A stretch of 64,000 bases of DNA, taken from the NCBI RefSeq assembly GCF_007164525.1, contig NZ_AP019791.1:855501-919500 (forward strand), read 5' to 3'. Made by a program: the position numbers and the translations under genes. The DNA is from Rubrobacter xylanophilus. Lineage in GTDB: Bacteria; Actinomycetota; Rubrobacteria; Rubrobacterales; Rubrobacteraceae. Positions 6,721 through 25,011 of this stretch are shown in pieces. Position 1 is the stretch's first letter, and each line of letters starts with the position of its first letter. The notes below the pieces were generated by a model that was given only the letters and a program-made list of their open reading frames with translations, did not search any database and was not told where the DNA came from.

Positions 6721-6883
6721 TCTTCCGGCTCGTGCCTCCGCCCGGCACCGGTTAGCGGCCACGAGATTCATGCTCTCCTGCTCTGCGGAGCCGGGTGGTC
6801 GGGAAGCCGGATGACCATCAGGCGAGCGTGGCGGAGTCTTCAGGCCATGCTCGTGGAGGCCATCAGGGTCCCTGCCCGGCCCT
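6721..6883. other. Intergenic, nothing recognised
   Basis: This lies between the ZIP gene stop and the lspA remnant. No gene or structured site is evident. Confidence 0.3.
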
Positions 6884-7621: not shown

Positions 7622-7669
7622 GGGGCTGCTCCCTCGGGCGGCCGCGCTCCGAACGGGGCGCCAACGGCG

Positions 7670-9263: not shown

Positions 9264-10672
9264 GATCCCCCCGAGTTTAGCGGGATTATCGTACGGTACT
9301 TGCCACCCGCGGATTGCTCCGGCGGCTCCCCGGCGCGCTCGACCGTGACGTGGTCGAGCCCGTTTCCGGCGAGGAGGTGCGTGATCTCGTCGTGCACCAT
9401 CCGCCACACGCGCTCCGGGTCGGCACCGGCCGCGGGATGCAGGCGCACGCGCAGGCTCGCCGGTGCGGTCTGCACGATCTGGAACAGCTCGACCCCCGGG
9501 GTGCGATCGACCAGCGAGCCGAACGCCAAAGGCGGAATGGTGACCCGCTCGCCGCCGATAGGAAAGGCGAGCACGTCGGCGGCGCGGCCCTGCACGCGGA
9601 TGGCGGGCAGCGTGTTACCGCACGAGCAGGGGTCGGGCCGCTGCAAGATACTGTCGCCGAGGTCGTAGCGGATGATGGGCTGCACCCGGTTGGCGAGGTT
9701 CGTGAGCAGGACCGTGTGCGAGTGCTTGCCCGGCGCGACGGGGCGGTGGTCGGCGTCGACCGGCTCCAAGACGAGCCAGTCGCTATTGACGTGCAGCCAG
9801 CCGTGCTCGCAGCGGTAGCTGATGAAGGGGCACTCGGTGGCGGCGTAGCTGTCGCGGACCTTGGCGTCGAACGCCCCGGCGATCCGGTCGTACTCGCGTG
9901 CCGGGAGCCCCTCGGCCGAGAGCACCACCAGCACCGGGTCGATGCGCAGGCGGCCGGCCTCCCGCTCGCCGGCCAAGAGCGCGGCCATGCTCGCGTACGA
10001 GGCGACTATGACCGGCCGAAACCGGTTGAGTTGAGCCACCATCTCCGGTAGGGGCATATCCACCGGGAAGACCTGGACCCGTTTGCCACGTAGGCGGGTG
10101 GCGGCTACCGCGGAGGCGAAGTGGCCGCCCATGGCGTTCACCATGGCCATGCGCCCGCCGCCGGCGAGGATGCCGATGACGTCGCCGATCCCGAGCCAGG
10201 CGCTCAGCATGCGGAAGACGAGGGCGCTGGTCACGGCCATGCTCCGGTCGTCCAGCACGAAGATCCTGCGGTTCCCGGTGGTGCCCGAGGTGGTGAGCAA
10301 CGTGTACCTGCCCAGGAACCGCTCCCCGATGAGGTCGGGGTTCTCAACGAACGCCCGCGCCTTCTCGATGGTCACCTCACGGTCGGTCGCCCAGTCGTCG
10401 AAGCGCGCCATCAGCGCCTTCTTTGAGGTAATCGGCAAGAGCGTGGGATCCTCGATCTTCTCCGGCAGGTCCCGGTAGAGCTTGCGGTAGTACGGCGAGT
10501 TGGCACACGCGAAGGCCACCATCCCGGCAAGCCGGGCGCGCTGCCGCCGCTCGATCGCAGCCGGGCCTTGCTTTCTGGCCCTGCGCGCGTCGCGCAGCAG
10601 CCACAGCGGATGTTCGCGCGTCCTGCCGGGTGCGGTTGCCGCGCCGGTTGCTTTCGATGGTGCGCCGGACAT
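9260..10672 (-). CDS. PaaK-like adenylate-forming enzyme
   Basis: The 470-residue protein is an ANL-superfamily member close to phenylacetate-CoA ligase/CapK-type proteins. Visible motifs are the P-loop-like LTTSGTTGNRR (residues ~130-140), SYAATECPF (the Y-x-x-TE adenine motif), RYDLGD (ribose-binding Asp) and a DPCSCGNTLP Cys cluster typical of PaaK relatives. It would activate a carboxylate as an acyl-AMP. The substrate is unknown. It sits between the P1B ATPase (14-base gap) and lspA (4-base overlap), a setting that does not suggest aromatic degradation. The start has a GAAGGAGG Shine-Dalgarno. Confidence 0.8.
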   Translation of the reverse strand: MSGAPSKATGAATAPGRTREHPLWLLRDARRARKQGPAAIERRQRARLAGMVAFACANSPYYRKLYRDLPEKIEDPTLLPITSKKALMARFDDWATDREVTIEKARAFVENPDLIGERFLGRYTLLTTSGTTGNRRIFVLDDRSMAVTSALVFRMLSAWLGIGDVIGILAGGGRMAMVNAMGGHFASAVAATRLRGKRVQVFPVDMPLPEMVAQLNRFRPVIVASYASMAALLAGEREAGRLRIDPVLVVLSAEGLPAREYDRIAGAFDAKVRDSYAATECPFISYRCEHGWLHVNSDWLVLEPVDADHRPVAPGKHSHTVLLTNLANRVQPIIRYDLGDSILQRPDPCSCGNTLPAIRVQGRAADVLAFPIGGERVTIPPLAFGSLVDRTPGVELFQIVQTAPASLRVRLHPAAGADPERVWRMVHDEITHLLAGNGLDHVTVERAGEPPEQSAGGKYRTIIPLNSGGS

Positions 10673-10686
10673 GCCATCGACCTCCT

Positions 10687-12666
10687 TCAGCCGACCCTCC
10701 GGGCGACGCGCAGGCCGTTGGCGATGGCGAGAAGCTCCGATGTCTCGTGGGCGAAGACGGCAGCGGCGATGCCGAGCAAGCCGAGTACCGCGCCGGGGAT
10801 GAGGACGGCCAGAACCAGTATGGAGAAGACGATGTTCTGCAGGCTTATGCGCTGGCTGCGCCTGGCGAGCCTGAGAGCGTAGGCAACCTTGCGTGGGTCG
10901 TCGCCCATGAGCGCCACGTCCGCCGCCTCTATGGCCGCGTCGGTACCTGCGGTGCCCATCGCCATCCCGACGGTCGCCGTGGCAAGGGCCGGCGCGTCGT
11001 TAATGCCATCCCCGACCATCGCCACGGGGCCGTGCTCCCGCTCCAGCTCCTTTACGGCTTCCACCTTGTCCTCGGGCTTCAGGTCGGCGCGCACCTCGTC
11101 GATGCCCAGCTCCCGGGCGATGGCTCTGGCGGTGCGCAGGTTGTCCCCGGTGAGCATCGCTACCTTGTAGCCCATCTCGTGCAACTCTTCGATGGCGCGT
11201 TTCGCCTCCGGACGCGGCTCGTCACGGATGGCGAGGAGCCCCTCCACACGCTCTCCGGTCCCGACCAGGACCACCGTCTTGCCTTCCTCCTGAAGGTGCT
11301 CGATCTCTTCTAGCGTACCGTCGAGGGAAACCCCGAGATCGCGGAACAGGGCGGGGCTGCCCACGTAGACGGTCCGGCCGTCGACCTCGGCCCTGGCACC
11401 GGCACCGGTGAGGGACCGGAAATCCCTGACCTCCGCAGGATGTATGCCCTCCGAGCGGGCACGCTCGACGATCGCCCGGGCCAGCGGGTGCTCGCTCAGG
11501 TGCTCGACGCCGGCTGCGACTCTCAGCATGCCGTCGGCCGAACCGTTGCCCGCGACGACATCGGTCACCACGGGCTTGCCGCGGGTGAGGGTTCCGGTCT
11601 TGTCGAAGGTGACGACCCTGACCTTCGCCAGGTTCTCCAGGTGGATGCCGCCCTTTATGAGCACGCCCTCGCGCCCGGCGCGGCCTATCGCCGCGGCAAC
11701 CGCCACGGGGGTGGACATGACCAGGGCGCACGGAGCGGCGGCGACGAGCAGCACCACCGCGCGGTAGGCCCAGGTGTCGAAGGAGCCGCCGAAGAGCGGC
11801 GGGACGACCAGGAGCAAGAGCGCTCCCAAAAGGACGGCGGGACTGTAGCGGCTACCGAAGCGGTCGATCCAGCGCTGCGCGCCGGACTTGACGCCCTGCG
11901 CCTCCTCGACCAGGTGGATGATCTTCTGCAACGAGTTCGACTCGAAGCTCGTGGTGGCGCGCACCTTCAGGGAGCCTGTGGCGTTTATGGTCCCGGCGAA
12001 GACCTTCTCCCCCTCGCCCTTCTCCACCGGCACCGACTCGCCCGTCACCGCCGACTCGTCCAGGCTGCTTGCGCCCTCCAGGATCTCACCGTCCGTTGGG
12101 ATGCGCTCGCCGGGCCTGACCAGGAAGAGGTCGCCGACCGCAAGCTCCTCCGCCGGGACCGTCTCCTCGCGCCCATCCTTGAGGAGCGTCGCCGTCTCGG
12201 GGGCGAGGTCCAGGAGCGCCCGGATGGCGGTGCGGGTCCGGGCGTAGGTGTACTCTTCGGTCGCCTCGGCGCCGGCGTAGAGGAAGACCAGGAAGGCGGC
12301 CTCGAACCACGCGCCCAGGATCACCGCGCCCACGGTCGCGAACGCCATGAGGACCTCGATGCCGACCTCGCGCTCCTCTACGAGTTCCTCAAGACCCTCG
12401 CGCGCCCAGTAGTAAGCGCCGATCAGGATGACGAGGACGAAGACGGAGATCGGTACGTAGGCCGGAAAGCCCGTGAAGCGCTCGATCAGCCACCCGATCA
12501 GCAGCAGCGCGCCCGCGATGAGGGCGTTGCGCATCGGCGGGAAGAGATACCACGGCCCCTCAAAGCCCTCGACCTCTTCGTCCTCGTCTCTCTCTTCGGT
12601 CTCTACATCCTCGCGCTCGCGAAGTCGTTCTTTGGCCACGTTTTGCTCCTTTCGTTCTTTGGCCAC
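10687..12666 (-). CDS. P1B-type metal ATPase with APC motif
   Basis: The 659-residue pump has the actuator TGES (209-212), the TM6 metal motif APC (311-313) instead of CPC, the phosphorylation loop DKTGTL (355-360) and GDGINDAP. The C-terminal HETSELLAIANGLR recalls the HEG motif of P1B-4 pumps. There is no CxxC metal-binding domain; the N-terminus is a short acidic/basic tail. P1B pumps export soft or borderline divalent metals. GTG 12666 and GTG 12639 both follow identical Shine-Dalgarno sequences because 27 bases are tandemly duplicated. It is 37 bases downstream of arsR. Confidence 0.88.
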   Translation of the reverse strand: MAKERKEQNVAKERLREREDVETEERDEDEEVEGFEGPWYLFPPMRNALIAGALLLIGWLIERFTGFPAYVPISVFVLVILIGAYYWAREGLEELVEEREVGIEVLMAFATVGAVILGAWFEAAFLVFLYAGAEATEEYTYARTRTAIRALLDLAPETATLLKDGREETVPAEELAVGDLFLVRPGERIPTDGEILEGASSLDESAVTGESVPVEKGEGEKVFAGTINATGSLKVRATTSFESNSLQKIIHLVEEAQGVKSGAQRWIDRFGSRYSPAVLLGALLLLVVPPLFGGSFDTWAYRAVVLLVAAAPCALVMSTPVAVAAAIGRAGREGVLIKGGIHLENLAKVRVVTFDKTGTLTRGKPVVTDVVAGNGSADGMLRVAAGVEHLSEHPLARAIVERARSEGIHPAEVRDFRSLTGAGARAEVDGRTVYVGSPALFRDLGVSLDGTLEEIEHLQEEGKTVVLVGTGERVEGLLAIRDEPRPEAKRAIEELHEMGYKVAMLTGDNLRTARAIARELGIDEVRADLKPEDKVEAVKELEREHGPVAMVGDGINDAPALATATVGMAMGTAGTDAAIEAADVALMGDDPRKVAYALRLARRSQRISLQNIVFSILVLAVLIPGAVLGLLGIAAAVFAHETSELLAIANGLRVARRVG

Positions 12667-12687
12667 GTTTTGCTCCTTTTAAGGTCT
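12634..12687. repeat. 27-bp tandem duplication of RBS and start codon
   Basis: Read on the minus strand, an AAAGGAGCAAAAC Shine-Dalgarno stretch followed by GTGGCCAAAGAACG occurs twice with a 27-base period. The gene therefore has two in-frame start sites (12666 and 12639), giving proteins that differ by nine residues. Confidence 0.75.
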
Positions 12688-12703
12688 GCGTACGGTCAAA
12701 GCC

Positions 12704-13117
12704 CTAGGCGGAAGTCGCCCCTCGCTCTGCGAGGACGTGTCCCACGCAGTCCTCAAGGAGCCGGCGCAGATGCTCGTCTTCGAGGCGGTAGTAGGCCAAC
12801 CGGCCCTCCTTACGGAAGCTCACCACCCCCCGATCCCTCAAGCGCTTGAGCTGGTGGCTCGCGGCGCTGATGGAGAGCCCCGCCACCGCGGCTACATCAC
12901 AGACGCACAGCTCCTCCACCGAGAGGGCGTAGACGATGCGTGACCGCGTGGGGTCGGAGAGGAGCCCGAAGATCTCCGTCGCCCTCCGCGTGACCTCCTC
13001 CTCCGGCAAAGCCTCCCGAGCTCGCCGCACGGCCTCCGCGTGGATGACGTCCACCTCGCAGACGTCCTCGCTCGCGATCCGCTCCAGATCCTTCTCTTTG
13101 TCGTCGATCGCTCGCAC
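12704..13117 (-). CDS. ArsR/SmtB-family metalloregulator
   Basis: The 137-residue winged-helix repressor has both classic sites: an alpha3-type Cys set (C20 in EDVCEVD; C71 and C73 in ELCVCD) and an alpha5-type set (D114, H116 in EDEHL and H127). The recognition helix is SISAASHQLKRLR. Such proteins leave DNA when Zn, Cd or Pb binds. It starts the six-gene minus-strand metal operon. The 36 bases upstream are AT-rich but no perfect operator dyad is seen. Confidence 0.9.
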   Translation of the reverse strand: MRAIDDKEKDLERIASEDVCEVDVIHAEAVRRAREALPEEEVTRRATEIFGLLSDPTRSRIVYALSVEELCVCDVAAVAGLSISAASHQLKRLRDRGVVSFRKEGRLAYYRLEDEHLRRLLEDCVGHVLAERGATSA

Positions 13118-13315
13118 GCAATACTCTCCTATAGTTGAACGACAATCGAAATAATGCTATACCGGCGCGTATGGAGCGTCAACTTGCCGGGGCGGCGCGA
13201 TCCGCAGGAAGGCGGGCGGAGGCGGTCGGGTTCCGGTTCGGGGTTCCGGGCGGAGAAAGCTGACGAGCGACCAACGACGGCGAAGAGGGAGCCGTTCGGG
13301 AGAGGAGAAAGAGCG

Positions 13316-13648
13316 GTGAGGACTTACACGGTTGGGGACACTATCACACTGGAGCTGGACCTGAGGGACTCAAGCGGCGTCTCCCGGGTCGATACCCTTT
13401 TCAGGGAAGACGCGAGCGGTCGCGTCATATCCATGCACGGTGACGGCGGCGGAGAGAAAGAGGTGACCGTGAGGCTCGAGGTGGAGCTTACCGACGAGAC
13501 CTTCCCCGGCGAGTACCGGTGCCGGTTCGTCGACGCTTACAACACGCGGGGCGGCAAGGACACCCACCACCCGGATATACGCTTCAGGGTCCAGATGTTC
13601 CCCGCCGAAGGCGGCGGGCCGGAGCTGGTGGAATGGCGCCTGTCGTAG
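13316..13648 (+). CDS. Hypothetical beta-rich protein, 110 aa
   Basis: The protein starts at GTG 13316, with AGGAG at 13303-13307, reading VRTYTVGDTITLELDL. The open frame extends 5' but without a start context. Alternating hydrophobic/polar residues suggest a beta-sandwich. There is no signal peptide or Cys. It is transcribed away from the arsR gene. I do not recognise the family. Confidence 0.6.
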   Translation: MRTYTVGDTITLELDLRDSSGVSRVDTLFREDASGRVISMHGDGGGEKEVTVRLEVELTDETFPGEYRCRFVDAYNTRGGKDTHHPDIRFRVQMFPAEGGGPELVEWRLS

Positions 13649-13777
13649 AGTCCGGCAAAGATCAAGTAAACGCCGGCATATGGTCAACATTGACAAAAAA
13701 TTGAGCCGATCTGATCAGGACAACACCGTCTCGCTCCGATACATTTGCGTCGCAAGTACGAAGAAGGAGGCTCTTGG

Positions 13778-14185
13778 ATGAGTGATGGTACCAAGACCGT
13801 GCTCGGCGCCCTCGGCGGCATCTTGTTGCTGCTCGTCCTGCTGGCGATCCTCGCCGGCGGCGGCTTGTTCGGTGGTGGTTCGATGATGGGTCCCGGAGGC
13901 ATGATGGACGACTGGGGGTGGGGTCCGGGTGGCATGATGGACGGCGGCCGGGGTTTCTTCGGGATACTCTGGACGCTCGTCCCGCTCCTGTTCTGGGGCG
14001 GGCTGATCGCATTGATCGTCTGGGCCGTAGTGCGCATCACCTCGGGTCAGGGTAGCTCCGACGACCATCGGGCACGCGCCGGATCGGCGGAGGAGATCCT
14101 GCGGGAGCGCTTCGCGCGCGGCGAGATCGACGCCGAGGAGTACGAGAGATCGCTTGAGGTGCTGCGGGGCGAAGGGAGTGCTTGA
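13778..14185 (+). CDS. Membrane protein with C-terminal SHOCT domain
   Basis: The 135-residue protein has a TM helix at residues ~7-28, a Gly/Met/Trp-rich linker (GSMMGPGGMMDDWGWGPGGM), a second TM helix around 60-80, and a SHOCT-type tail EEILRERFARGEIDAEEYER. Met-rich linkers can bind soft metals, which is an inference. ATG 13778 has AAGGAGG in front. It follows the 110-residue gene by 129 bases. Confidence 0.75.
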   Translation: MSDGTKTVLGALGGILLLLVLLAILAGGGLFGGGSMMGPGGMMDDWGWGPGGMMDGGRGFFGILWTLVPLLFWGGLIALIVWAVVRITSGQGSSDDHRARAGSAEEILRERFARGEIDAEEYERSLEVLRGEGSA

Positions 14186-14371
14186 AAAGGGGTTTCTTCC
14201 AAGGCTGCCCAGGATCTTACGGCTGCGCCGGTATCCTCGCGGTGGCGCGGGTCGCCCTCTCAGCCAACCCGCGCCTGCGTAAGCGAACTGCGACTCCAGG
14301 ACCAAAATCACAAGTCTCGCACCAGAACGTGAGACGTACGTACTGCTGAGAACCGTCACCCCCGCAAGGTT

Positions 14372-14833
14372 TCAAGGACCTTCTCGCGGAGTCGGGGTTT
14401 CTGCGAGACCACTCTCCACGAAGCCGCGTCCCCTTCGCGAGAGACCGAAGTAAGGCATCCCCGCTATGGGACGTTCTTCCGTAAGACCCCGGGCGGCGAG
14501 AGCGCGCAGCACGTCCTCGATCTCCGGCTGCGGATATTCGAGCAACGTGGCTACGTCGCAGGCGCAGAGGGTCGCCTCCGCGAGGCTTGCCAGTGTCCTG
14601 GCCTCCGTCGGGTCGCGCAGAAGGCCAGGGGCCGCTCCAAGGATCCGTTCGGCCACCGCTTCGCCGATCAGGACCGCCGCGACGTACTCCCCGGAGACCT
14701 CGCAGGTGAACGGCACCCGCCGAACCTCCCCCTCGCCGAGGCGCTCGCGCGCGGCTTTGGCCGCTTCCGGCAGCAGGCAACGGGTCGCGCAACCTCCCGT
14801 GTCAAGTATTCGGAACTTGCCTCGTCTGTCCAC
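14372..14833 (-). CDS. ArsR-type winged-helix protein with N-terminal CxxxC extension
   Basis: The 153-residue protein has a C-terminal winged helix with an LCAC pair (C90, C92) at the usual metal-site position. Its N-terminal ~75 residues are unusual for the family and carry C15 and C19 (GGCATRCLL) and C44 (PFTCEVSG). CxxxC plus CxC repeats the four-Cys logic of CadC at wider spacing. GTG 14833 follows GGAGGTG and starts 2 bases after the glutaredoxin stop. It is the last gene of the ATPase(CTC)-methyltransferase-glutaredoxin unit. The sensed ligand is unknown. Confidence 0.65.
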   Translation of the reverse strand: MDRRGKFRILDTGGCATRCLLPEAAKAARERLGEGEVRRVPFTCEVSGEYVAAVLIGEAVAERILGAAPGLLRDPTEARTLASLAEATLCACDVATLLEYPQPEIEDVLRALAARGLTEERPIAGMPYFGLSRRGRGFVESGLAETPTPREGP

Positions 14834-14835
14834 GG

Positions 14836-15072
14836 TTACACCTCCAGCTTCTCGCCGAGCTTCTTCGGGTCGAACCCGATGATGACCTCTCCACGGATCA
14901 CGGTGGTCGGGGTCGCTTGAGATCCGAGCCCGGTCAGCTCTCTGAGAGCCTGCTCGTCTTCCCGGATATCCTTCTCGATGAAGAACACGCCTTTGTCCGA
15001 GAGCCACTTCTTCTCCCGCAAGCAGCCGGCGCAACCAGGCTGCGTGTAGATCACAACCTGTTTTTCGGCCAT
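14836..15072 (-). CDS. Glutaredoxin-like protein
   Basis: The 78-residue thioredoxin-fold protein has the redox motif CAGC in YTQPGCAGCLREK, the cis-Pro segment SQATPTTVI, and GFDPKKL. It would reduce disulfides or carry thiol-bound metal intermediates in the cytoplasm. ATG 15072 has AAGGAG upstream. It is followed 2 bases later by the ArsR-type gene and preceded 13 bases earlier by the methyltransferase gene. Confidence 0.82.
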   Translation of the reverse strand: MAEKQVVIYTQPGCAGCLREKKWLSDKGVFFIEKDIREDEQALRELTGLGSQATPTTVIRGEVIIGFDPKKLGEKLEV

Positions 15073-15085
15073 ACTCTCTCCTTCG

Positions 15086-15736
15086 CTACCGGTCCTTTCG
15101 TACAAAGACCATCCCGTAGTGGTATGGGGGGAGTTCCATGACCCGCTCCAGCTCGAAACCGGCGGGCTCCACGACGGCCCCGGTCTTCTCGGGTGACATG
15201 CGCATCTCCGTGGCGGGGCCGCGGGGTTCGCCCAGTACGGACGTTTCTTCTCTCGGTATGGGGTGCCAGTTCACGATGGCGAACCTTCCGCCGGGTTTGA
15301 GCACCTCGAAGAGCGCGCGGGCCAACCTCGTTTGCTCCGGCACTCCGTGGAAGGTATTCGCCAGCAGCACGAGATCGACCGGCGCGGGGACGTGCTTGGC
15401 GATATCGCGGGCGTCGGCCAGGGCGAACTCGCAGTTGTTCGCCCCGTGGCGGGCCACCTCTTCTTTGGCCCGCTCCAGCATCCCGGGGTCCAGATCCAGC
15501 GCGTAGACCCTGCCCGGAGCCACCAACCGCGACAGAGGAGCGGTGAAGTAGCCGTCGCCGCAACACAGGTCGACCACACTCATCCCCGAGGAGATGCCCA
15601 GCTTCTCCAACACGCCTTCCGGGTCGGGCCACAGGGCGCTCCACCAGTCCCTGTCCGGCATGCCGGTGGCCGGGAAGGGGGACATTCGGCTTTCTTCCCG
15701 GCCCGGTCCACGACCGGCTCCGCCGGCGGGAGACAT
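15086..15736 (-). CDS. Class I SAM-dependent methyltransferase
   Basis: The 216-residue protein has motif I VVDLCCGDGYFTAPL, motif II VYALDLDPGML and a FALADARD acidic block. The target is unknown. It lacks the set of conserved Cys expected for arsenite methyltransferase. The ATG at 15736 once overlapped the ATPase stop as TAATG; an IS now lies between them. Neighbours (ATPase, glutaredoxin, regulator) suggest a metal- or metalloid-linked role. Confidence 0.78.
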   Translation of the reverse strand: MSPAGGAGRGPGREESRMSPFPATGMPDRDWWSALWPDPEGVLEKLGISSGMSVVDLCCGDGYFTAPLSRLVAPGRVYALDLDPGMLERAKEEVARHGANNCEFALADARDIAKHVPAPVDLVLLANTFHGVPEQTRLARALFEVLKPGGRFAIVNWHPIPREETSVLGEPRGPATEMRMSPEKTGAVVEPAGFELERVMELPPYHYGMVFVRKDR

Positions 15737-15756
15737 TACTTCCCTCCCCTCTCCGG

Positions 15757-16941
15757 GTGGTCTCCCTGATTAGAGTTGGTGAGATACGGAGAATATGTCA
15801 TCAACGAGAGCAGGGGAGGTCGAGTGGAGCGGATCAAGGAGCAGAGGTTGGCTTCGGCTGGCACTTTTTGCCCCAACGAGGAGTGCCAACTCCATGCCCA
15901 GGTGGATGAGGGCAACATCATCAAGTTCGGTAAGAGCAAGCAGGGCGTCCAGCGTTACCGATGCAAGTCCTGTGCAACCACCTTTAGCGCCACGCGCGGG
16001 ACGCTCTTCTATCGCAAACACGCGGCTCTAAAGGACATCCTCGAAACTCTGGCGCTCTTGGCCGAGGGGGTCAGGATCAGTAGCCTCGCTCGCGCGAAGG
16101 GCTTTAAGGAGGACACGATCCTCAGGTGGCTGCGCGAGGCTGCCCGCCACGCGGACGCCGTCGAAGAGGCGTTGATGGGCGACTACGAGGTGAGCAAGGC
16201 TCAGGTGGATGGGTTGTGGGCCTACGTGGGGAACAAAGGCAAAAAGGGGGCCACGAGGAACGCCCGGATAGAGGAGAGTTCTGGCGCTTGACGCTGATCG
16301 AGAGCGACACACGACTGCGGGCGGCACGCGCGATAGCCAAGAGCGAGACACAGGCGGCTATCGAAGCGTTCGAGAGGCTAAAGAGTCGAGGGCATCCGCA
16401 TTCTCCGCCGCCTTTGGTATCGGATGGGTGGGGTGGATACGACGAGGCGATGGTGGAGGTGTGGGGGAAGGTGCCCGAGTATGGAGGAAGAGGACGCCCT
16501 CCGACCAAGAAGCGACCCCAATCGGGCTGGCGGCATTTGCAAATGGTCAAGCGGCGAGAAAACGGGCGGGTGATGGGAGCGAAGGCGAAGACCATTTATG
16601 GGGACGAGCACGAAGTGATCGAGTTGTTGGGAACAAGCACCAGCTACGTCGAACGCACCAACCTCACCTCTCGGCACATGAACGGTAGGTTGGCGAGGAA
16701 GACTTTAGGCTACTCCAAAGAGCTCGAGATGCTCGTGGCATCCTCGATCTGGGAAGATGCGGTCTACAACCTGGGCCGGGCGCTAAAGACGTTGAGGATC
16801 AAGAGCCCGGAAGAAGCGGGGCGACGCTGGAGGAGGCGATCTCCAGCGATGGCGGCTGGATTGACGGATCATATCTGGGAGATCGAGGAGTTGCTCATCA
16901 CGTTGCCACTTCCAATTACCAACACTTGATCGGGAGACTAT
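15757..16941. mobile_element. IS1-family insertion sequence
   Basis: The element of about 1185 bp has imperfect terminal inverted repeats: GTCTCCCTGATTAGAGTTGG at 15760-15779 and its counterpart reading GTCTCCCGATCAAGTGTTGG from 16938 inward. It contains one transposase gene in two frames. It inserted at the very 3' end of the CTC ATPase gene. Removing it and one duplication joins the ATPase reading frame to a stop that overlaps the methyltransferase start. Confidence 0.8.
15824..16929 (+). CDS. IS1-type transposase read in two frames
   Basis: The first frame has a zinc-ribbon (CPNEECQLH...YRCKSCATTFS), an HTH segment and the first catalytic Asp in VDGLWAYVGNK. The -1 frame continues with RGEFW, the second Asp in LVSDGWGGYD, and the conserved ERTNLTSRHMNGRLARKTL block with the Glu. 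The switch must occur near AAAAAGGGGG (16241-16250). Lys-AAG slippage on CAAAAAG makes programmed -1 frameshifting plausible, as in IS1; a mutation is the alternative. GTG 15824 has GGGGAGG upstream. Confidence 0.75.
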
Positions 16942-19189
16942 CCCTCTCCGGCTTCGGGCGGAGCAACCTCAGGCCGTTGGCGATCACCACGAGGGCGCTC
17001 CCCTCGTTTATGGCGATGGCCGGCACCAGGCCCACCAGGCCGAGGAGCGCGGTGGGTACCAGCACCGCGACGAGGCTCACGGAGAAGAAGACGTTCTGGC
17101 GGATCGTTCGCGTCGCCCGGCGCCCCAAAGAGAGCGCCTCGGCCAGGCGCCTCAGGTCGTCGTCCATCAGCACGATGTCGCCTGTCTCGCGGGCCACGTC
17201 GGTGCCGCGGACTCCCATGGCGATCCCGAGGTCCGCCTGCGCAAGGGCCGGCCCGTCGTTGATGCCGTCGCCGACCATCGCGACCCGGTGGCCCCGCTCC
17301 TGCAGCTCCCGGACCACCCGGATCTTGTCGTCGGGCAAAAGCTCGGCGTGGACCTCGTCTATGCCCGCCTGCCGGGCGAGCGCCTCGGCGGTCCGGCGGT
17401 TGTCGCCGGTGAGCATGACGACGCGCTTTACGCCCCGCTTCTTGAGCAGCGAGACGGCCTCGGCGGCTTCCTCACGCAAGGGGTCCTGGATGCCCAAGAC
17501 GCCGAGGATCTTCCTGCTCTTCCAGACAACGATCGCGGTTTTTCCTGCGGACTCGAGGTCCGCCACGGCCCCGAGCTCTCCTGTGGGGATGTCCTCCTCC
17601 GCAGCGAGGCGCGGGCTGCCGACGAAGATGCGCTCGCCCTCCACCTCGGCGACGGCCCCGCGTCCCGTAAGGGCCGAGAAGCGCTCGGAGGTCGGGACCG
17701 CGAGCCCTTCTTTTTGCGCCCGGCGCACGACGGCGGCGGCTATGGGGTGCTCGGAACCGGCCTCGACCGCCGCGGCGAGCCCGAGCAGTTCCTCGCGGGA
17801 GACGACACCCTCCGCCGGGACGACGTCGGTGAGCTCGGGTTGACCGGTGCTCAAGGTCCCAGTCTTGTCGAGGGCCACCGTATCCACGCGGGCGGCGGCC
17901 TCCAGGTATGCTCCTCCCTTGACGATCAGGCCGCGACGAGCCCCGTTGCTGATCGCGGCGAGCGCGGCCGTCGGGACCGAGAGCACGAGCCCACAGGTGC
18001 AGGAGATCACCAGCACCACCAACGCCCGGTAGAACCAGGGCTCGAAGGGCTGGGCGAAGAGGAGCGGCGGTATCGTCGCCACGAGCGCGGCCAGGGCGAA
18101 CATAGCGGGGGTGTAGACGGCCCCGAAGCGCTCGCCGAAGTTCTCGTAGCTCGACTTGTGGGCGCGAGCCTCCTCGACGGTGCGGATGATCTGGGCCAGC
18201 GTCGTCTCCGAAGAGGCGGCCGTGACCCTGACCGTCAGCACGCCGTTCAGGTTCATGGTGCCGGCGAAGACCTCGTCGCCTTCCTCCTTGTCCACCGGCA
18301 TGGACTCGCCGGTGATCGGCGCCTCGTCCACCGCGGAGCCGCCCTCGACCACCTCGCCGTCCAGGGGGATCCTGCTCCCGGGCTTGATCCGGATCAGGTC
18401 GCCCACCCGTACCGCCTCCACGGGCACGGTCTCCTCCGCGCCGCCCCGGCGCACCACGAGCGCCGAAGGCGGGGCCAGGTCCATGAGCGCTTTAAGGTTG
18501 CGCCGGGCGCGGTCGGTGGCGTAGACCTCCATCACCTCCCCGAGCGAGAAGATGACCACCAGGCTCGCCGCCTCTTCCCACAGCCCCAGCCACAGCGCCC
18601 CCGCGCTGCCCACGACCAGAAGCGTGTTGATCGTGATCCTCTTGCGCTTGAGGGAAGCGTAGGCGCTGCGTGCGGGCGCGTAGATGCCGACGAGGATGGA
18701 CGCGCCGAACAGAATTCGTGCCAGGAGCTCCCCACCTCCGAGCCTGTCGGCCAGGCCGGTCCACTCGAAGACGAGGCCCAACATGAGCAGCGACGCCGAG
18801 AGAGCCAGAAGCACCTGCCGGGTCTGCCTCCACCAGGGCCTGGGCTCCTCTCTTGCCGGCGTATCCCCGGCCGGTGGCGCCCCCGCGGCCGCAACCACAG
18901 AACCGCTCGGGCTCCGGGAGCCCTGCGGCCTGACCGCCCACCCTTCGCTCTTCATGATCCTCCGGATGGCCTCCGTGTCGGCCTCGCCGATCACCGTCAG
19001 CCTACCGGCCACCGGGTTGAAGTCGGCCTCCTCTACACCCGGAAGATCCGCTATGGCCTCCTCGACCTCCCCGGCGCAGTCCAGGCAACCGGCGCCCTCG
19101 ACCTCGTAGACCGCCACCCGTCCGTCACCGCCGCCGTTTCCATCCTCCACGGGCGGCCCTACCTCCCGCTCTTCGAACCGCTCTTTCAA
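16916..19189 (-). CDS. P1B-type metal ATPase with CTC motif, 3' end rewritten by IS
   Basis: The 757-residue pump has one N-terminal HMA-like domain with a CxxC site (C35, C38), TGES at 293-296, an unusual CTC motif (397-399) where CPC is normal, DKTGTL at 441-446, and GDGINDGPA. Loss of the Pro in the TM6 motif is rare, so metal specificity is uncertain. The last codons (after PER) now come from the IS end and read DSLPIKCW; before insertion they would have read GGK then stop. TTG 19189 is preceded by AAGGAGA and by a palindrome (19205-19220). Confidence 0.85.
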   Translation of the reverse strand: MKERFEEREVGPPVEDGNGGGDGRVAVYEVEGAGCLDCAGEVEEAIADLPGVEEADFNPVAGRLTVIGEADTEAIRRIMKSEGWAVRPQGSRSPSGSVVAAAGAPPAGDTPAREEPRPWWRQTRQVLLALSASLLMLGLVFEWTGLADRLGGGELLARILFGASILVGIYAPARSAYASLKRKRITINTLLVVGSAGALWLGLWEEAASLVVIFSLGEVMEVYATDRARRNLKALMDLAPPSALVVRRGGAEETVPVEAVRVGDLIRIKPGSRIPLDGEVVEGGSAVDEAPITGESMPVDKEEGDEVFAGTMNLNGVLTVRVTAASSETTLAQIIRTVEEARAHKSSYENFGERFGAVYTPAMFALAALVATIPPLLFAQPFEPWFYRALVVLVISCTCGLVLSVPTAALAAISNGARRGLIVKGGAYLEAAARVDTVALDKTGTLSTGQPELTDVVPAEGVVSREELLGLAAAVEAGSEHPIAAAVVRRAQKEGLAVPTSERFSALTGRGAVAEVEGERIFVGSPRLAAEEDIPTGELGAVADLESAGKTAIVVWKSRKILGVLGIQDPLREEAAEAVSLLKKRGVKRVVMLTGDNRRTAEALARQAGIDEVHAELLPDDKIRVVRELQERGHRVAMVGDGINDGPALAQADLGIAMGVRGTDVARETGDIVLMDDDLRRLAEALSLGRRATRTIRQNVFFSVSLVAVLVPTALLGLVGLVPAIAINEGSALVVIANGLRLLRPKPERDSLPIKCW

Positions 19190-19204
19190 ACCGTCTCCTT
19201 TATG

Positions 19205-19220
19205 ATCAAGGAAATTTGAT
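19205..19220. promoter_or_regulatory. Likely ArsR operator before CTC ATPase
   Basis: ATCAA-N6-TTGAT, followed by TAA, lies 15 bases upstream of the ATPase start. The same arms and spacing occur at 19639-19654 before the neighbouring arsR gene. Two matching dyads before both genes suggest common control by that repressor. Confidence 0.65.
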
Positions 19221-19262
19221 TAAATGAGCGTAAACGGACCGCCGAACGCGCGCCTTATGGAC

Positions 19263-19622
19263 TTATGCGGTCAACGCCTCGTTACGTTCGTGCGTCGCCG
19301 AGAAGAGCAACCCGAGCCGCTCCAGGAGCTTCGGGTCGCGCAGGCTGTAGTGGCTCCAGGTGCCGTGCAACTCGCGCTCCACGACCCCCGCTTTGAGCAG
19401 GACCTTCAGGTGGTAGGAGACCTTCGATTGGCCGAGACCCAGGAGCTCCTCGAACTCGCAGGTGCAGAGGTCCTCTCGCTGCTCCAGGAGGCGGACCATC
19501 TGCAGCCGGATCGGGTCTCCGAGAGCCTTCCCGTAGGCCGCCAGGGCCGACGCTTCCCCCTCGGGGAGCAGTTGCAGGTCCCCCCGCCGCACCCTGGGTA
19601 TCTCGCTGTAGCACTCGTCCAA
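19263..19622 (-). CDS. ArsR-family metalloregulator next to CTC ATPase
   Basis: The 119-residue winged-helix protein has the Cys pair C53 and C55 in DLCTCEFEELL, an extra C4 near the N-terminus, and the recognition helix GQSKVSYHLKVLL. TTG at 19622 is preferred: the frame runs further upstream only because it passes through a SLOG gene fragment. It lies 43 bases upstream of the ATPase operator, on the same strand. It probably represses itself and the ATPase gene. Confidence 0.82.
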   Translation of the reverse strand: MDECYSEIPRVRRGDLQLLPEGEASALAAYGKALGDPIRLQMVRLLEQREDLCTCEFEELLGLGQSKVSYHLKVLLKAGVVERELHGTWSHYSLRDPKLLERLGLLFSATHERNEALTA

Positions 19623-19638
19623 GCCAAACCACCCCTTT

Positions 19639-19654
19639 ATCAAATTTACTTGAT
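19639..19654. promoter_or_regulatory. Likely autoregulatory ArsR operator
   Basis: ATCAA-N6-TTGAT followed by TAATAA lies 16 bases upstream of the arsR TTG start, matching the dyad at 19205-19220. Confidence 0.65.
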
Positions 19655-19700
19655 TAATAACGACCAGTGTAGCTCTCCTCAGGGGAAAGTCAAGGATCGC

Positions 19701-19808
19701 CCTCGTCGTCAGCGAGGAACCGGGACCGAGCGCGCCGCCGGCGGGCGGGAAGACGCGCGGGGCGGAGACGCCGGCGACCATCGCGCGGGTGCGGACTGCG
19801 AGGCGATG
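19701..19808 (-). pseudogene. Fragment of a second SLOG gene
   Basis: The minus strand encodes LAVRTRAMVAGVSA then VFPPAGGALGPGSSL, matching LAARTRAVVAGASA and VFPPAGGSLGPGSSL of the SLOG gene at 5321-5794. Most codon differences are synonymous. The N- and C-terminal parts are missing. It now forms an accidental in-frame extension before the arsR gene. Confidence 0.65.
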
Positions 19809-19843
19809 AGGCTCGTTCTGTGCGAACCCTTTGTCGGCACGGG

Positions 19844-20896
19844 TCATTCCATGGGCATGTCCATGCCGTTCTTGTTCGGGGGCGGCTTCTCGCCCATGCG
19901 CCGGAGCATGTCCTGCATGGCCTTTATCTCGGCGCTCTGGGAGGCGACGATGGAGCTTGCGAGCCGCTCGACCTCCGGGCGGTCGGTGCGGTCCAGGACG
20001 GCCCGCGCCATGGGGATGGCGCCCTGGTGGTGGGGGATCATGAGCCGCAGGAACTGCTTGTCCATCTCCGCGGGAGGCATGTCGCGCAGGGCGTTGATCT
20101 CCTTCCGGGTGGCCATGCCGGGCATCGTGCCCTCTGTCGGCATCCCCATCCAGGCCATCGGGGGTTCGGCGCTCGTCGGGGAGAGGTCCCAGACGGAGAG
20201 CCAGCCCTGCATCTGCCCGATCTGGGCTTGCTGGGTGAGGATGATGTCCGTTGCGAGGGTCCGGACCTCTTCGTTATCCGTCCTGCCCTGTACGATTCCG
20301 GCCATCTCGACGGCCTGGGCGTGGTGGACGGACATGTCCCGGGCGAAGCCCGCCTCCGGCGAGCCATCGCCGGGCGGCCTGCCGGAGAGGTAGAGCAACA
20401 GCGCCAGGCCCGCCAGCAGGACGGCGGCGAGGGCCAGGATCTGGACCAGGGTCCGATCCCCGCCCCGGGCCACCGAAAGCAGGCCCGGTCGCCGGGAGAA
20501 CCGCAGCCTCGCCAGGACGAAGACGAGGACCAGCTCCGCCGCCGTCGCGGCCAGATCCAGCACCCCGACCGCCTCCATCTCTCCCGCGTCCGGCCCAAAG
20601 AACGGTACGCCCGCGGTGCGGGTCACGAGCCAGAGGACGACCACGCCCAGGTTGGCCGCTATCCCTAAAGAGAAGAGCGCCGGCCGGGGCCAGCGCAACA
20701 GGGCCGGACCGTAGGCCCCCTGAAAGACGGCGGTTCCCAGGAAGAACGCCCCGTAGCCCCACCACTCCTCGAAGTGCTCCGGCGTCACCCGGAGGTGTAT
20801 GAGCGCCGCCGCCAAGGACAGCGCCGCCGCCGCGTACAGGACCGCCCTGGATCCCCGCGCGAAGCGACCTTCGCTACCCAACTCCAGGCCCGTCAT
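19844..20896 (-). CDS. Membrane protein with C-terminal DUF305 domain, His/Met-rich
   Basis: The 350-residue protein has about five hydrophobic segments in the first half, then a DUF305 domain with ARDMSVHHAQAVEMAG and LMIPHHQGAIPMARAVLD, whose paired His residues are candidate metal ligands. Met-rich stretches follow (AWMGMPTEGTMPGM; tail NGMDMPME). ATG 20896 overlaps the upstream stop (ATGA), so it is co-translated with the DUF3105 gene. Copper-linked roles are common for such Met/His-rich proteins; here that is inference. Confidence 0.75.
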   Translation of the reverse strand: MTGLELGSEGRFARGSRAVLYAAAALSLAAALIHLRVTPEHFEEWWGYGAFFLGTAVFQGAYGPALLRWPRPALFSLGIAANLGVVVLWLVTRTAGVPFFGPDAGEMEAVGVLDLAATAAELVLVFVLARLRFSRRPGLLSVARGGDRTLVQILALAAVLLAGLALLLYLSGRPPGDGSPEAGFARDMSVHHAQAVEMAGIVQGRTDNEEVRTLATDIILTQQAQIGQMQGWLSVWDLSPTSAEPPMAWMGMPTEGTMPGMATRKEINALRDMPPAEMDKQFLRLMIPHHQGAIPMARAVLDRTDRPEVERLASSIVASQSAEIKAMQDMLRRMGEKPPPNKNGMDMPME

Positions 20897-21459
20897 GAGG
20901 GTTCTCCTACCCCGCCGGTGCAGGCGGCGCCGGGCTCCGGGGTCTGGGGACCGATGCGGTAGGCACGGACGAACTGCTCCAGGCGTGGATCGTCGGCGGA
21001 GTCCAGTTGCAACTGGACTCCCCATGCCGAGGCCACCACGGGGACGGACAGGTCCGGGTAGGGGCTCGCGATGATGCAGTCCCGGCTCTGCGCCAACTGC
21101 CGGAGCGTGTCTTTCTGTGCCTGAGAGAGGTCGGGTCGGTAGGTGATCCAGACCGCCCCGTGCTCCATGGTGTGGACGGCGGTCTCGTTGCGTACCGGGT
21201 CCGCATAGAACCCGCTATTCTGCCAGACCGGATTATGGTTCCCTCCGGCCGGTGGCGTCTGCGGATAGTTGATCGCCCCCTCGGTGTGGTTGCGGCTCGG
21301 GATGGTGAACTCCCGCACGCCCTCCGGGGGCTCGCTCGCCGCCCGCTGTCCGCGGTCTATCACGACCACCGCGACGAAGACGCCGAGCACGGCCGCGACG
21401 ACCAGCGCCGCGATCAGGAGCCCCCGGGGACGCTCCCCGCTCGTTCCTCTCCTGCTCAA
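20893..21459 (-). CDS. DUF3105 membrane-anchored protein
   Basis: The 188-residue protein has one N-terminal TM helix (RGLLIAALVVAAVLGVFVAV) and an extracytoplasmic domain with DUF3105 features: NYPQTPPAGGNHNPVWQNSG and AVHTMEHGAVWITYRP. The conserved His residues look like metal ligands. It is coupled to the DUF305 gene. The start is TTG at 21459. Function is unknown. Confidence 0.8.
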   Translation of the reverse strand: MSRRGTSGERPRGLLIAALVVAAVLGVFVAVVVIDRGQRAASEPPEGVREFTIPSRNHTEGAINYPQTPPAGGNHNPVWQNSGFYADPVRNETAVHTMEHGAVWITYRPDLSQAQKDTLRQLAQSRDCIIASPYPDLSVPVVASAWGVQLQLDSADDPRLEQFVRAYRIGPQTPEPGAACTGGVGEPS

Positions 21460-21561
21460 AATCCTTCCTTCCTCTATCGATCATGGATCGTCCGGCGCCG
21501 CAGTGGCGCGCTCGGCCGTCAGGGGCAGCGCCGGATGTACCCGGGAAACGTGCTCCCGGGT

Positions 21562-21861
21562 CTAGAGGAAGGGTCTCGGAGGCGGAGCCTCGGGCGAGAG
21601 GAGAAACTGGTCGGGTTGCCGGTGGCTGCCGGCGCGGCGCCGGAGGAACGAGCCGGAAGCGGCCATCGAGGCCAGCCCCACGAGCACCGCGACCAGGGCG
21701 CCGGCGGCGACCCCTCCGGAAGCCGGGGCGTCGACGTGCGAGATCTCCGGGCATCCGCCCGAGTCGCAGTACCCCGACCCATCCAGGTACGGGTAGAGCG
21801 CCACGAACCCGGCGACGAGGGCCGCGAGCATGACCACCAGCGTGCGACGCCAAACCATCAT
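21562..21861 (-). CDS. Small two-TM hypothetical protein
   Basis: The protein of about 99 residues has TM helices at its N-terminus (LVVMLAALVAGFVALYPYL) and mid-region (AAGALVAVLVGLASMAA) and a short loop with two Cys (YCDSGGCPEISH) that could form a disulfide or bind metal. ATG 21861 or 21858 could start it. It precedes the DUF3105-DUF305 pair by about 100 bases on the same strand. I do not recognise the family. Confidence 0.5.
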   Translation of the reverse strand: MMVWRRTLVVMLAALVAGFVALYPYLDGSGYCDSGGCPEISHVDAPASGGVAAGALVAVLVGLASMAASGSFLRRRAGSHRQPDQFLLSPEAPPPRPFL

Positions 21862-21862
21862 A

Positions 21863-21881
21863 ACCGGTACATCATACCGGT
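21863..21881. promoter_or_regulatory. 7-bp palindrome near small membrane gene start
   Basis: ACCGGTA-N5-TACCGGT lies immediately upstream of the candidate start of the 21562-21861 gene. It is a good candidate operator for that gene and the DUF3105/DUF305 pair; the cognate regulator is unknown. Confidence 0.45.
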
Positions 21882-22089
21882 CGCGCGAGACGGACTCCAC
21901 CCTCTACGGACCGGCGCCGGGTTTCACACAAGCTTAATCAGGATTTTACGCGGCGGAAACGCTATCGGGAAGCGACGAACGTACCATGGCGGGCGGAGTA
22001 GAAGCCGGAATGAAAGGAGCGTCTTGTTCGACAGATCGAGTGAGTCCCGAACCTTCACGCCCGGGTCGGGGACGGAAGAGACCGGTAAC

Positions 22090-23428
22090 ATGAGAGGTAG
22101 GAACCGGGCGCGACGTCCGGTAGTGTTGAGCGGGCTGTTCGGCGCGCTGCTGGCGGTGGCATTGGTCGGCTTCGTTTCTTTGGGGACGGGCCTCGCGCAG
22201 CCGGGGGAGCGTGAACCGGGCGTTGAGGGATCTCCCGAAGGCAGGCCCGGAGGCGGCAAGGCGAAGAACGTGATCCTGCTCATCGGCGACGGGATGGGCG
22301 AGTCGGAGATCACCATCGCCCGCAACTACGAGAAGGGCGCCGCCGGACGACTCGCGCTCGACGCGCTGCCGCTCACCGGCGACTACACCACCTACGCCGT
22401 CCAGGAGGATGATCCCTCGAAGCCGGACTACGTGCCCGACTCGGCGGCCACCGGCACGGCGTGGGCCACGGGCGAGAAGACTTCCAACGGCCGCATCTCC
22501 ACGACGCCCGGGACGGACCGGGATCTCAAGACCATCCTGGAGCTGGCCCAGGAGGCCGGCTACAAGACCGGTGACGTCTCCACCGCCGAGCTGACCGACG
22601 CCACGCCGGCGGTGCTGGCGGCGCAGGTCAGGGACCGCAGCTGCCAGGGACCCCAGAACATGGCCGAATGCCCGCAGGACAGGAAGTCCAACGGTGGACC
22701 CGGCTCCATCGCAGAGCAGGAGGTCGATGAGGGCGTGGACGTCCTGCTCGGCGCGGGTCGCTTGCGCTTCGAGCAGGTCATAGACGGCGGACCCGATTCT
22801 GGCAAGACCGTCATCCAATCGGCCGAGCGCCAGGGCTACAGGGTGATCGGGACCGCCCAGGAACTGGAGATGGCCAGGTCCGGACAGAAGCTCCTGGGCC
22901 TCTTCAACGCCGGCAACATGAGCCTGGAGTGGACCGGCCAGCCGGCCGCCCCCGAGCCCGGCACCGGCCCGCAGCGCTGCCAGGAAGGCCGGCGCCCCGA
23001 CAACGAGCCGAGCCTGGCTCAGATGACGCAGAAATCCATCGAGCTGCTGGAGCAGAGGCCCGGCAAAGGCAAAGCGAAGGGTCGGCCCGGCTTCTTCCTA
23101 CAGGTGGAGGGCGCCTCGATAGACAAACGGGACCACGCCTTCAACCCGTGCGAGCAGATCGGAGAGAACGTTGCCTTCGATGAGGCCGTGAAGGTCGCCC
23201 TCGACTACCAGAAGAAGAACCCCGAAACGCTGGTCATCGTCACCGGGGACCATGCGCACACCAGCCAGATCATCCCCACCGATGCCACGAGCCCCGGCAA
23301 GGTGAGCACCCTCATCACCGCCGACGAGGCGGAGATGAAGGTCAACTACGGCACCGAGAAGGGCATCCAGACCCACACCGGCAGCCAGATCCGGGTGGCG
23401 GCCCAGGGTCCTATCCTGAATTATTCAT
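22090..23428 (+). pseudogene. Alkaline phosphatase, C-terminus removed by IS1380-type insertion
   Basis: The protein has a signal peptide (residues 1-37, ending near GLAQ), the metal-binding NVILLIGDGMGE, the nucleophile-Ser block PDSAATGTAWATG, EGASIDKRDHA and TGDHAHTSQI, as in PhoA-type enzymes that release phosphate outside the membrane. All catalytic residues I can name are present. The IS cuts it after AAQGP; the current frame adds ILNYS and stops inside the IS. The lost tail (MAQRVLGLTDQTDLF onward) is at 24868-24945. Residual activity is possible. Confidence 0.82.
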
Positions 23429-24863
23429 GAGCGAGTTCCGGGTCTGCTGAGGAGAGCACGTGCCAGAGGCGTTGGCCCGGGTGCCCCGAGGCCAGATGCA
23501 GGCGTACCTTCGTGAGCAGCTGGCGTACCCTGCCACCGATCTTAATGAGTGAGAGTCGAAGCGTGTCCAGCTGCATTCGCCTCACGCCCACCTCAACCAG
23601 CTTCCTACGTAAAGCGTCCATTAGCCAGTAGGCCGCCGCGTGCAAGATGAGCCGGAACTGGTTCGCCCAGAAACGATGGCAGCTCAATCGGTCGGCTTTC
23701 AGCGCTCGCTTGAAGTCCTTTATCCACCCCTCTGCTTCTCCGCGTCTGATGTACCAGTCGTAGAGCTCCTCCGGCTCATCGGAGCGGCTCGTAACCACAA
23801 AGCGGGTGTTCGTGCCCTTCTCCAAAACCTCCGCTTTGTAGATGACCCGACGGGCATGCTCCCAACTAAGAGCCCGGTATGAGCCACCAGAAACCAGCCT
23901 CACCTTCTCGCCCTCTCTCTCCTCAGACTCCCGTTTTGCCTGCTCAAGGAGATCTTGGGCGATCTCTTCGAGCCTGGGATTGGAGATGAGGCCTATGGTG
24001 TAGCCGATGCCCTCCTTCTCGCAGTAGTCGTAGATCTCTGGCACCGCGAAGCCCGCATCCGCCCTGATCTCGATCTGCACCTCTTCTCCCCACGCCTCCC
24101 TGAGTCTCCTCACGATGCGCCTTAGAACCGCCAACGCCCCACGGCTGGCATGGGTGTTGCCAGCCCTCAAAACCGCTGTGATGAGCTGACCGGTGTCCCC
24201 GTCGAAGACCAACAAGGGGTGGAGGATGTGCTCTTCGTAGTAGCCATGGTAGTAAGCACCTTCCTGATCGCCGTGGGCGGGGTCGTCGGTTGCGTCAAAG
24301 TCCAGAAGGATGCGCTCAGGAGGCGCACCGTCCTTGCTGCGCTCCCTGAGGTAGAGTTCACTCAACGCTTCGGCCATGCGCAGGCAGGCTCTGGCGTCGG
24401 GTGCGTTCTCAAGGCGAGAGATGGTGGGCTGGCTTGCCAGGTCCCCGTCTGTCTCCGGCAGAGACCCGCAGACCAACTTCAAGAGCGGATCTCTCCTCAA
24501 GGTGTCTGAGTCGTTTTGGTCCTCATAGCCGCACGCTATCTGCAAGACTCGCTGCCTGACCAGCCTCACAAGCGAGTGCCTGATGGAAGGTCCCTTTCGC
24601 CACTCGGGAACGTGAGAGGCGATCTTTTCGCACAGATTCCCGAGTTCTTCATCCGCTTTGGCCAACCAGATGAGCCCTCCGTCGGAGGTGAGCTTGCCGC
24701 CATCGAAGGCCGCCTCAAGCGCAAGCGGCGTGGTTTCAAAGCGCATCTTTTGTGTGGCACAATCACCCACGGAGGAGCCTCCTTCTTTGGTCAGTTACAG
24801 AGCAACTAGACCGTATACAGGAGTAGGCTCCTCCTCTTCAACCTCCTCTATGAATAATTCAGG
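23415..24863. mobile_element. IS1380-family insertion sequence
   Basis: This 1449-bp element has 14-bp perfect terminal inverted repeats (CCTGAATTATTCAT at 23415-23428, inverted at 24850-24863), one intact transposase gene and a 4-bp target duplication. Perfect ends and an open transposase frame suggest a recent insertion. Confidence 0.9.
23421..24770 (-). CDS. IS1380-family DDE transposase
   Basis: The 449-residue transposase has the family order: LTSDGGLIWLAKAD near the N-terminus, ILLDFDATDDPAHGDQEGAY with the first Asp, EIRADAGFAVPEIYDYC with the second, and RRGEAEGWIKDFKRAL with the Glu region. The stop lies in the left terminal repeat. GTG 24770 is the likely start; an ATG at 24746 is an alternative. 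No frameshift is seen. Confidence 0.9.
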   Translation of the reverse strand: MGDCATQKMRFETTPLALEAAFDGGKLTSDGGLIWLAKADEELGNLCEKIASHVPEWRKGPSIRHSLVRLVRQRVLQIACGYEDQNDSDTLRRDPLLKLVCGSLPETDGDLASQPTISRLENAPDARACLRMAEALSELYLRERSKDGAPPERILLDFDATDDPAHGDQEGAYYHGYYEEHILHPLLVFDGDTGQLITAVLRAGNTHASRGALAVLRRIVRRLREAWGEEVQIEIRADAGFAVPEIYDYCEKEGIGYTIGLISNPRLEEIAQDLLEQAKRESEEREGEKVRLVSGGSYRALSWEHARRVIYKAEVLEKGTNTRFVVTSRSDEPEELYDWYIRRGEAEGWIKDFKRALKADRLSCHRFWANQFRLILHAAAYWLMDALRRKLVEVGVRRMQLDTLRLSLIKIGGRVRQLLTKVRLHLASGHPGQRLWHVLSSADPELAHE

Positions 24864-24867
24864 CTAT

Positions 24868-24945
24868 GGCCCAGAGGGTGCTCGGGCTCACCGACCAGAC
24901 CGACCTCTTCGACACCATGTCCGCAGCTCTTGGCGTGAAGCGCTA
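24868..24945 (+). pseudogene. Detached 3' end of the alkaline phosphatase gene
   Basis: This reads AQRVLGLTDQTDLFDTMSA then ALGVKR and a stop, matching the usual C-terminal GLTDQTDLF block of PhoA-type phosphatases. It is in frame with the upstream part once the IS and one CTAT are removed. Confidence 0.85.
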
Positions 24946-25011
24946 GCAGAAAGCAAAGTAGCCGTCGCGGAGTTCGGGGCGGTGCAAGGTGATCCACCCT
25001 GCACCGCCTCT

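What the first reader, a model, noticed from the sequence alone, without database searches (positions are those of the whole stretch)
15736..16951. IS1-type insertion at an operon joint rewrote the ATPase C-terminus
Removing the IS (15757-16941) and one CCCTCTCCGG copy joins the ATPase frame to GGK-stop, whose TAA overlaps the methyltransferase ATG (TAATG). So ATPase, methyltransferase, glutaredoxin and the Cys-rich regulator were once one translationally coupled operon; now the pump ends with IS-encoded residues and downstream genes may have lost their promoter.
Basis: seen in the sequence. Interest (0 to 1): 0.6.

Follow-up and report, generated by a model that had tools for sequence, protein, structure and literature searches.

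The report
IS1-like insertion splitting a metal-pump operon
A small jumping gene landed exactly at the joint between a metal-pump gene and the next gene of its operon in a hot-spring bacterium; relatives without the insert show the original overlapping joint, so the event is real and well documented, but of an ordinary kind.

Summary
Confirmed. The window lies in Rubrobacter xylanophilus AA3-22 (chromosome length matches the published one). An IS1-like element with one copy in the genome sits between a P1B metal ATPase and a SAM-methyltransferase gene, flanked by the repeat CCCTCTCCGG. Two relatives that lack the IS (genome G014 and MAG contig JADDKG010000166) have exactly the predicted joint: ATPase ...KPERGGK*, stop overlapping the methyltransferase start (TAATG).

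Refinements: (1) element ends are more likely 15756-16942 (1187 bp) with an 8-bp target duplication, CCTCTCCG. (2) The ATPase loses GGK and gains DSLPIKCW; this tail is unconserved in homologues, so the pump is probably intact. (3) The methyltransferase keeps its ribosome-binding site, but the pump's ribosomes no longer reach it. (4) R. taiwanensis Yellowstone carries the identical IS at the same site. Thirteen flanking SNPs within 15.3-17.5 kb track IS presence and none outside do: one insertion, then horizontal exchange.

Loss of downstream expression is plausible but unproven. The four-gene arrangement is seen only in Rubrobacter, and the glutaredoxin gene is frameshifted in all three relatives. 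Ordinary IS biology.

The parts
15756..16942 (+).
   Evidence: Direct repeats at both ends; one hit in own genome, 100%; absent in G014 and L030, identical in G010; ends by comparison with related IS copies
15748..15755 (.). Target-site duplication, left copy CCTCTCCG (maximal repeat 15747-15756 CCCTCTCCGG)
   Evidence: Single copy in empty sites; 8-bp duplication in a related IS
16943..16950 (.). Target-site duplication, right copy (maximal repeat 16942-16951)
   Evidence: As above
15776..16291 (+). Transposase ORF1 (zinc ribbon, HTH, first catalytic Asp region VDGLW)
   Evidence: NF033558 transpos_IS1 E 2e-15 (below its cut-off), NF050000 Zn domain above cut-off
16126..16929 (+). Transposase ORF2, -1 frame (second Asp SDGW, Glu YVERTN); its first codons lie before the frame joint
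   Evidence: Pfam DDE_Tnp_IS1, 21.0 bits, cut-off 24.1; tblastn of fused frame to single-ORF relatives
16243..16249 (+). Candidate -1 slippery heptamer A_AAG_GGG joining ORF1 to ORF2
   Evidence: Sequence; A_AA.G_GG.G listed among motifs with high-level frameshifting in E. coli (PMC4066793)
16916..19189 (-). P1B heavy-metal ATPase, last 8 residues DSLPIKCW and stop from the IS
   Evidence: TIGR01525 E 1e-186 ending at residue 742; compare G014 tail GGK
15086..15736 (-). SAM-dependent methyltransferase, ATG overlapped by TAA in the empty site
   Evidence: Pfam Methyltransf_31 E 3e-20; empty sites
15737..15755 (-). Ribosome-binding region of the methyltransferase (CGGAGAGGGGAGGGAAGTA), kept whole beside the IS
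   Evidence: Sequence and structure model
14836..15072 (-). Glutaredoxin-like gene, intact here, frameshifted in G010, G014 and L030
   Evidence: Pfam Glutaredoxin; sequence comparison
14372..14834 (-). ArsR-like regulator-type protein with several Cys, GTG start
   Evidence: NF033788 HTH_metalloreg, weak (E 5e-5, below cut-off) on the longer ORF; start
19263..19847 (-). ArsR-family repressor upstream of the ATPase (ORF limits; true start probably near 19640), promoter-like site 19693-19666
   Evidence: NF033788 78 bits, cut-off 55; promoter scan

Best explanation
An IS1-like element transposed once, in a Rubrobacter ancestor of the present haplotype, into the last codons of a P1B metal-ATPase gene, duplicating 8 bp. 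Shown: the empty site in two relatives has ATPase ...PERGGK with TAA overlapping the methyltransferase ATG; the filled site has ATPase ...PERDSLPIKCW and 1.19 kb between the genes; the interrupted haplotype, IS and flanking SNPs together, is shared with R. taiwanensis by horizontal exchange. Inferred: the pump stays functional because its tail is unconserved; the methyltransferase keeps a complete Shine-Dalgarno region but loses ribosomes delivered by pump translation, and about 1.2 kb of antisense IS RNA beyond the pump stop should reduce expression of the downstream genes by polarity.
For: Direct repeats at both ends. Empty sites in G014 (L004) and MAG contig JADDKG010000166 (L030) with exactly the predicted joint. 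Same insertion, 0 differences in 1185 bp, in G010 = R. taiwanensis Yellowstone. Within 15273-17527, 13 of 14 variable sites split IS carriers from non-carriers; none of 100 outside do. No other copy in the genome. Homologue tails after NGLR vary in length and sequence. No sigma70-like promoter on the IS minus strand. Modelled accessibility of the methyltransferase Shine-Dalgarno region falls from 0.41 to 0.05 with 60 nt upstream.
Against: No transcript or protein data. Accessibility depends on the length folded (at 30 nt upstream it is higher with the IS, 0.64 against 0.33). Rubrobacter promoters may not match the scan, so an outward promoter in the IS cannot be excluded. A 72-codon open frame on the IS minus strand ends in the same TAA that overlaps the methyltransferase ATG, so coupling to an IS-born frame is possible.
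Confidence: 0.93

Rival explanations
1. The empty site is derived: the IS was ancestral and was precisely excised in G014 and the MAG lineage.
For: R. taiwanensis shares a second IS and the glutaredoxin +TT allele with the empty-site lineages, so the trees of neighbouring markers conflict.
Against: Precise excision restoring one target copy is rare for this kind of IS (established knowledge); 13 linked SNPs inside one tract explain the conflict by recombination; the empty joint TAATG with a Shine-Dalgarno region is a typical operon joint.
Confidence: 0.03
2. The insertion is real but functionally neutral: the downstream genes are expressed as before by read-through or from an own or IS-borne promoter.
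For: The methyltransferase protein is identical in the IS-carrying window and G010; Shine-Dalgarno region intact; open minus-strand frame through the IS end.
Against: No promoter-like site found near the joint; pump translation now stops 1.2 kb upstream. The identity of the methyltransferase reflects recent exchange and says little about selection.
Confidence: 0.35
3. The split transposase means the IS is dead, its frameshift being a mutation and not a programmed one.
For: Distant relatives with the same domain order have one continuous ORF; only one copy per genome; both known copies are identical by descent, so give no test.
Against: A canonical A_AAG_GGG heptamer lies in the overlap, ORF2 is open throughout, and IS1 elements classically use -1 frameshifting (PMC8944449, PMC4066793, PMC3196728). 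By simple counting such an in-frame heptamer within the overlap has an appreciable chance (my estimate, about 0.2).
Confidence: 0.35

Closest known systems
IS1 family (InsA / InsAB' by -1 frameshift, 8-9 bp target duplications)
   Same: Zinc-ribbon/HTH N-terminus, DDE pieces VDGLW / SDGW / YVER, two frames in -1 relation with a slippery heptamer, GG-starting left end, short duplication
   Different: Transposase 384 aa, scores below curated IS1 cut-offs; about 1.19 kb; no DNA match in the plasmid collection; full-length protein matches only about 26-35%
Long IS1-like elements of Deinococcus/Meiothermus plasmids
   Same: tblastn over about 80-93% of the fused transposase, one annotated IS1 transposase
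   Different: 27-31% identity only
IS1-like element at G010:C56:77605-78851 (R. taiwanensis)
   Same: 35% identical transposase, GGTAG ends, 8-bp duplication CGATGTCG, in the same island
   Different: Single-frame transposase; different site (window 6384-6391)

Membership tests
IS1 family | Transposase matches the IS1 family models | tested here: inconclusive
   NF033558 67.1 bits against cut-off 100; Pfam DDE_Tnp_IS1 22.7 against 24.1; IS1/IS1595 Zn domain 36.8 against 28
IS1 family | Two ORFs in -1 relation with a slippery heptamer | tested here: met
   ORF1/ORF2 in -1 relation, A_AAG_GGG at 16243-16249; actual frameshifting not testable here
IS1 family | Inverted ends beginning GG and target duplication of 8-9 bp | tested here: inconclusive
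   Left GGTGGTCTCCC, right GATAGTCTCCC (second base differs); a related right end has GGTAGTCTCCC; an 8-bp TSD is compatible with the 10-bp maximal repeat but the exact cut cannot be read from one copy
IS1 family | DDE catalytic residues | tested here: inconclusive
   Candidate D, D, E in VDGLW, SDGWGGY, YVERTN; each aligns with Asp or Glu in the relatives; no structure made
P1B heavy-metal ATPase | Family score, HMA domain, DKTGT | tested here: met
   TIGR01525 622 bits (cut-off 346), PF00403, DKTGT
P1B heavy-metal ATPase, CPC class | CPC motif in the metal-site helix | tested here: not met
   CTC (SCTCGLVLSVP) instead; shared by its close homologues in G010 and G014
Translationally coupled operon | Overlapping stop/start in the uninterrupted form | tested here: met
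   TAATG in G014 and L030
Translationally coupled operon | Downstream translation depends on upstream translation | not testable with these tools
   Needs reporter or expression data

The most novel reading that the evidence does not exclude
The IS-interrupted joint was favoured because it uncouples the pump from the methyltransferase, glutaredoxin and regulator, and the interrupted haplotype spread between Rubrobacter lineages for that reason.
Probability: 0.05. Interest if true: 0.4.

Novelty: new member of a known kind. Interest (0 to 1): 0.2.

Why it matters
It is a clean case, with empty-site proof from two relatives, of an insertion converting a TAATG gene joint into a 1.2-kb gap without destroying either gene, and of an IS travelling between lineages inside a homologous tract rather than by transposition. 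It also warns that the annotated C-terminus of this pump in AA3-22 and R. taiwanensis is IS-derived. No new principle is involved.

Tried and rejected
Searching the IS as DNA in the plasmid collection gave no match. A sample of 396 genomes of the phylum gave no strong transposase relative outside the family. Looking for the operon outside Rubrobacter: of 80 methyltransferase loci the two Rubrobacter ones have the ATPase upstream (one of them with the IS between), the other 78 (52-72% identity, nearly all Proteobacteria) do not, so conservation there cannot be used as a test. The papers found by text search gave no description of this insertion in their titles or abstracts. An outward promoter in the IS was looked for and not found. 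A rescue of the frameshifted glutaredoxin in relatives by ribosomal slippage was considered and judged unlikely: no good slippery site by eye.

Full report
Where it is. The window lies in a single-contig genome of 3,022,875 bases, which equals the published length of the Rubrobacter xylanophilus AA3-22 chromosome (PMC6706694). The same-genus genome G001 (contig of 3,225,748 bases) has the length of R. xylanophilus DSM 9941 given in that paper and lacks a close copy of the methyltransferase (only 32% identity).

The observation. CCCTCTCCGG occurs at 15747-15756 and 16942-16951. Between the copies lie two overlapping + strand frames in -1 relation with IS1-type transposase matches. On the minus strand the ATPase frame crosses the right repeat and ends in the IS after eight IS-encoded residues, DSLPIKCW.

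Element ends. The maximal repeat is 10 bp. A related IS in R. taiwanensis (G010:C56:77605-78851), in the same island, has ends GGTAGCACCCC / GGTAGTACCAC and an 8-bp duplication CGATGTCG, seen against the empty window site 6384-6391. A right-end fragment of a closer relative in G060 reads GGTAGTCTCCC when reversed. With the same rule the present element is 15756-16942, 1187 bp, ends GGTGGTCTCCC and GATAGTCTCCC, duplication CCTCTCCG. The remaining base on each side matches by chance. This is likely, not proven.

The transposase. Joined at A_AAG_GGG (16243-16249) the two frames give 384 residues. The fused protein scores 67.1 bits to NF033558 (cut-off 100) and 22.7 to Pfam DDE_Tnp_IS1 (cut-off 24.1), but passes the cut-off of the IS1/IS1595 zinc domain. 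Nearest full-length relatives are mostly single-frame proteins in the family (30-35%) and Deinococcus and Meiothermus plasmid elements (27-31%). I therefore call it IS1-like. The motif A_AA.G_GG.G is named among motifs with high-level -1 frameshifting in E. coli (PMC4066793), and -1 frameshifting is usual in IS1 (PMC3196728, PMC8944449). Whether it works here is untested.

History. R. taiwanensis Yellowstone (G010, title) has the same IS at the same site with no difference in 1185 bp. Its flanks tell more: from 15273 to 17527, 13 of 14 variable sites separate window and G010 from the two empty-site lineages, while none of 37 sites to the left and none of 63 to the right do. Elsewhere G010 often groups with the empty-site lineages: all three share a second insertion at 13673-13680 (an element with 8-bp duplication) and a +TT in the glutaredoxin gene. 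Sites 15272 and 15518 show all four combinations, so recombination took place. Best reading: one insertion, carried between lineages inside a tract of a little over 2 kb of target DNA plus the IS.

Consequences. The pump model match ends at residue 742 of 757, and homologous pumps differ freely after NGLR, so loss of GGK and gain of DSLPIKCW is probably harmless. The methyltransferase keeps CGGAGAGGGGAGGGAAGTA before its ATG because the duplication reproduces the needed part. The TAA overlapping the ATG is also kept, but now closes a 72-codon open frame of the IS minus strand, not the pump. In folding models its ribosome-binding region pairs with UCUCCC just after the ATG; mean accessibility is 0.41 (empty) and 0.05 (filled) with 60 nt upstream, but the order reverses with 30 nt, so this is only suggestive. 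No sigma70-like promoter was found between the pump stop and the methyltransferase. Reduced downstream expression is likely by general knowledge of polarity, not shown.

The operon. ATPase/methyltransferase overlap by TAATG, then 13 nt to glutaredoxin and 2 nt to the regulator-like gene. Outside Rubrobacter none of the examined methyltransferase relatives lies just downstream of such an ATPase, so this is a local arrangement. In the relatives glutaredoxin is frameshifted, hence an 'ancestral intact four-gene operon' is inferred by combining genomes.

Verdict. Observation correct to within a base or so; interpretation right on structure and history, unproven on expression. Interest low.

Noticed in passing
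window 14975-14990 (glutaredoxin gene); L029, L030, G014: Glutaredoxin is intact in the window but carries a 2-base insertion, a frameshift, in R. taiwanensis, G014 and the MAG contig.
   Followed up: partly
window 16916-19189 (ATPase): The metal-site helix reads SCTCGLVLSVP, CTC in place of CPC; its close homologues share it while other family ATPases seen have CPC or APC. Metal specificity may be unusual.
   Followed up: partly
window 6384-6391: R. taiwanensis carries a second, different IS1-like insertion here with 8-bp duplication; the window is the empty site.
   Followed up: yes
window 13673-13680: R. taiwanensis has a 1766-bp insertion here (533-codon transposase-like frame, ends GATACTGTTGG, 8-bp duplication CCGGCATA); G014 and the MAG contig also enter it; the window is empty.
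   Followed up: partly
window 19806-39036: In R. taiwanensis and G014 the sequences of window 19805 and 39037 lie about 0.7 kb apart, so the window holds some 19 kb extra (or the others lost it).
   Followed up: no
window about 19200-19230 and 19636-19660: Similar AT-rich palindromes (TTAATCAAATTTCCTTGATCA; TTAATCAAGTAAATTTGATAA) precede the ATPase and the arsR gene, possibly ArsR-type operators.
   Followed up: no
window 3243-19805: About 98-99.5% identical to R. taiwanensis while other shared parts of the window are about 75-93%, indicating a recently exchanged metal-resistance island.
   Followed up: partly
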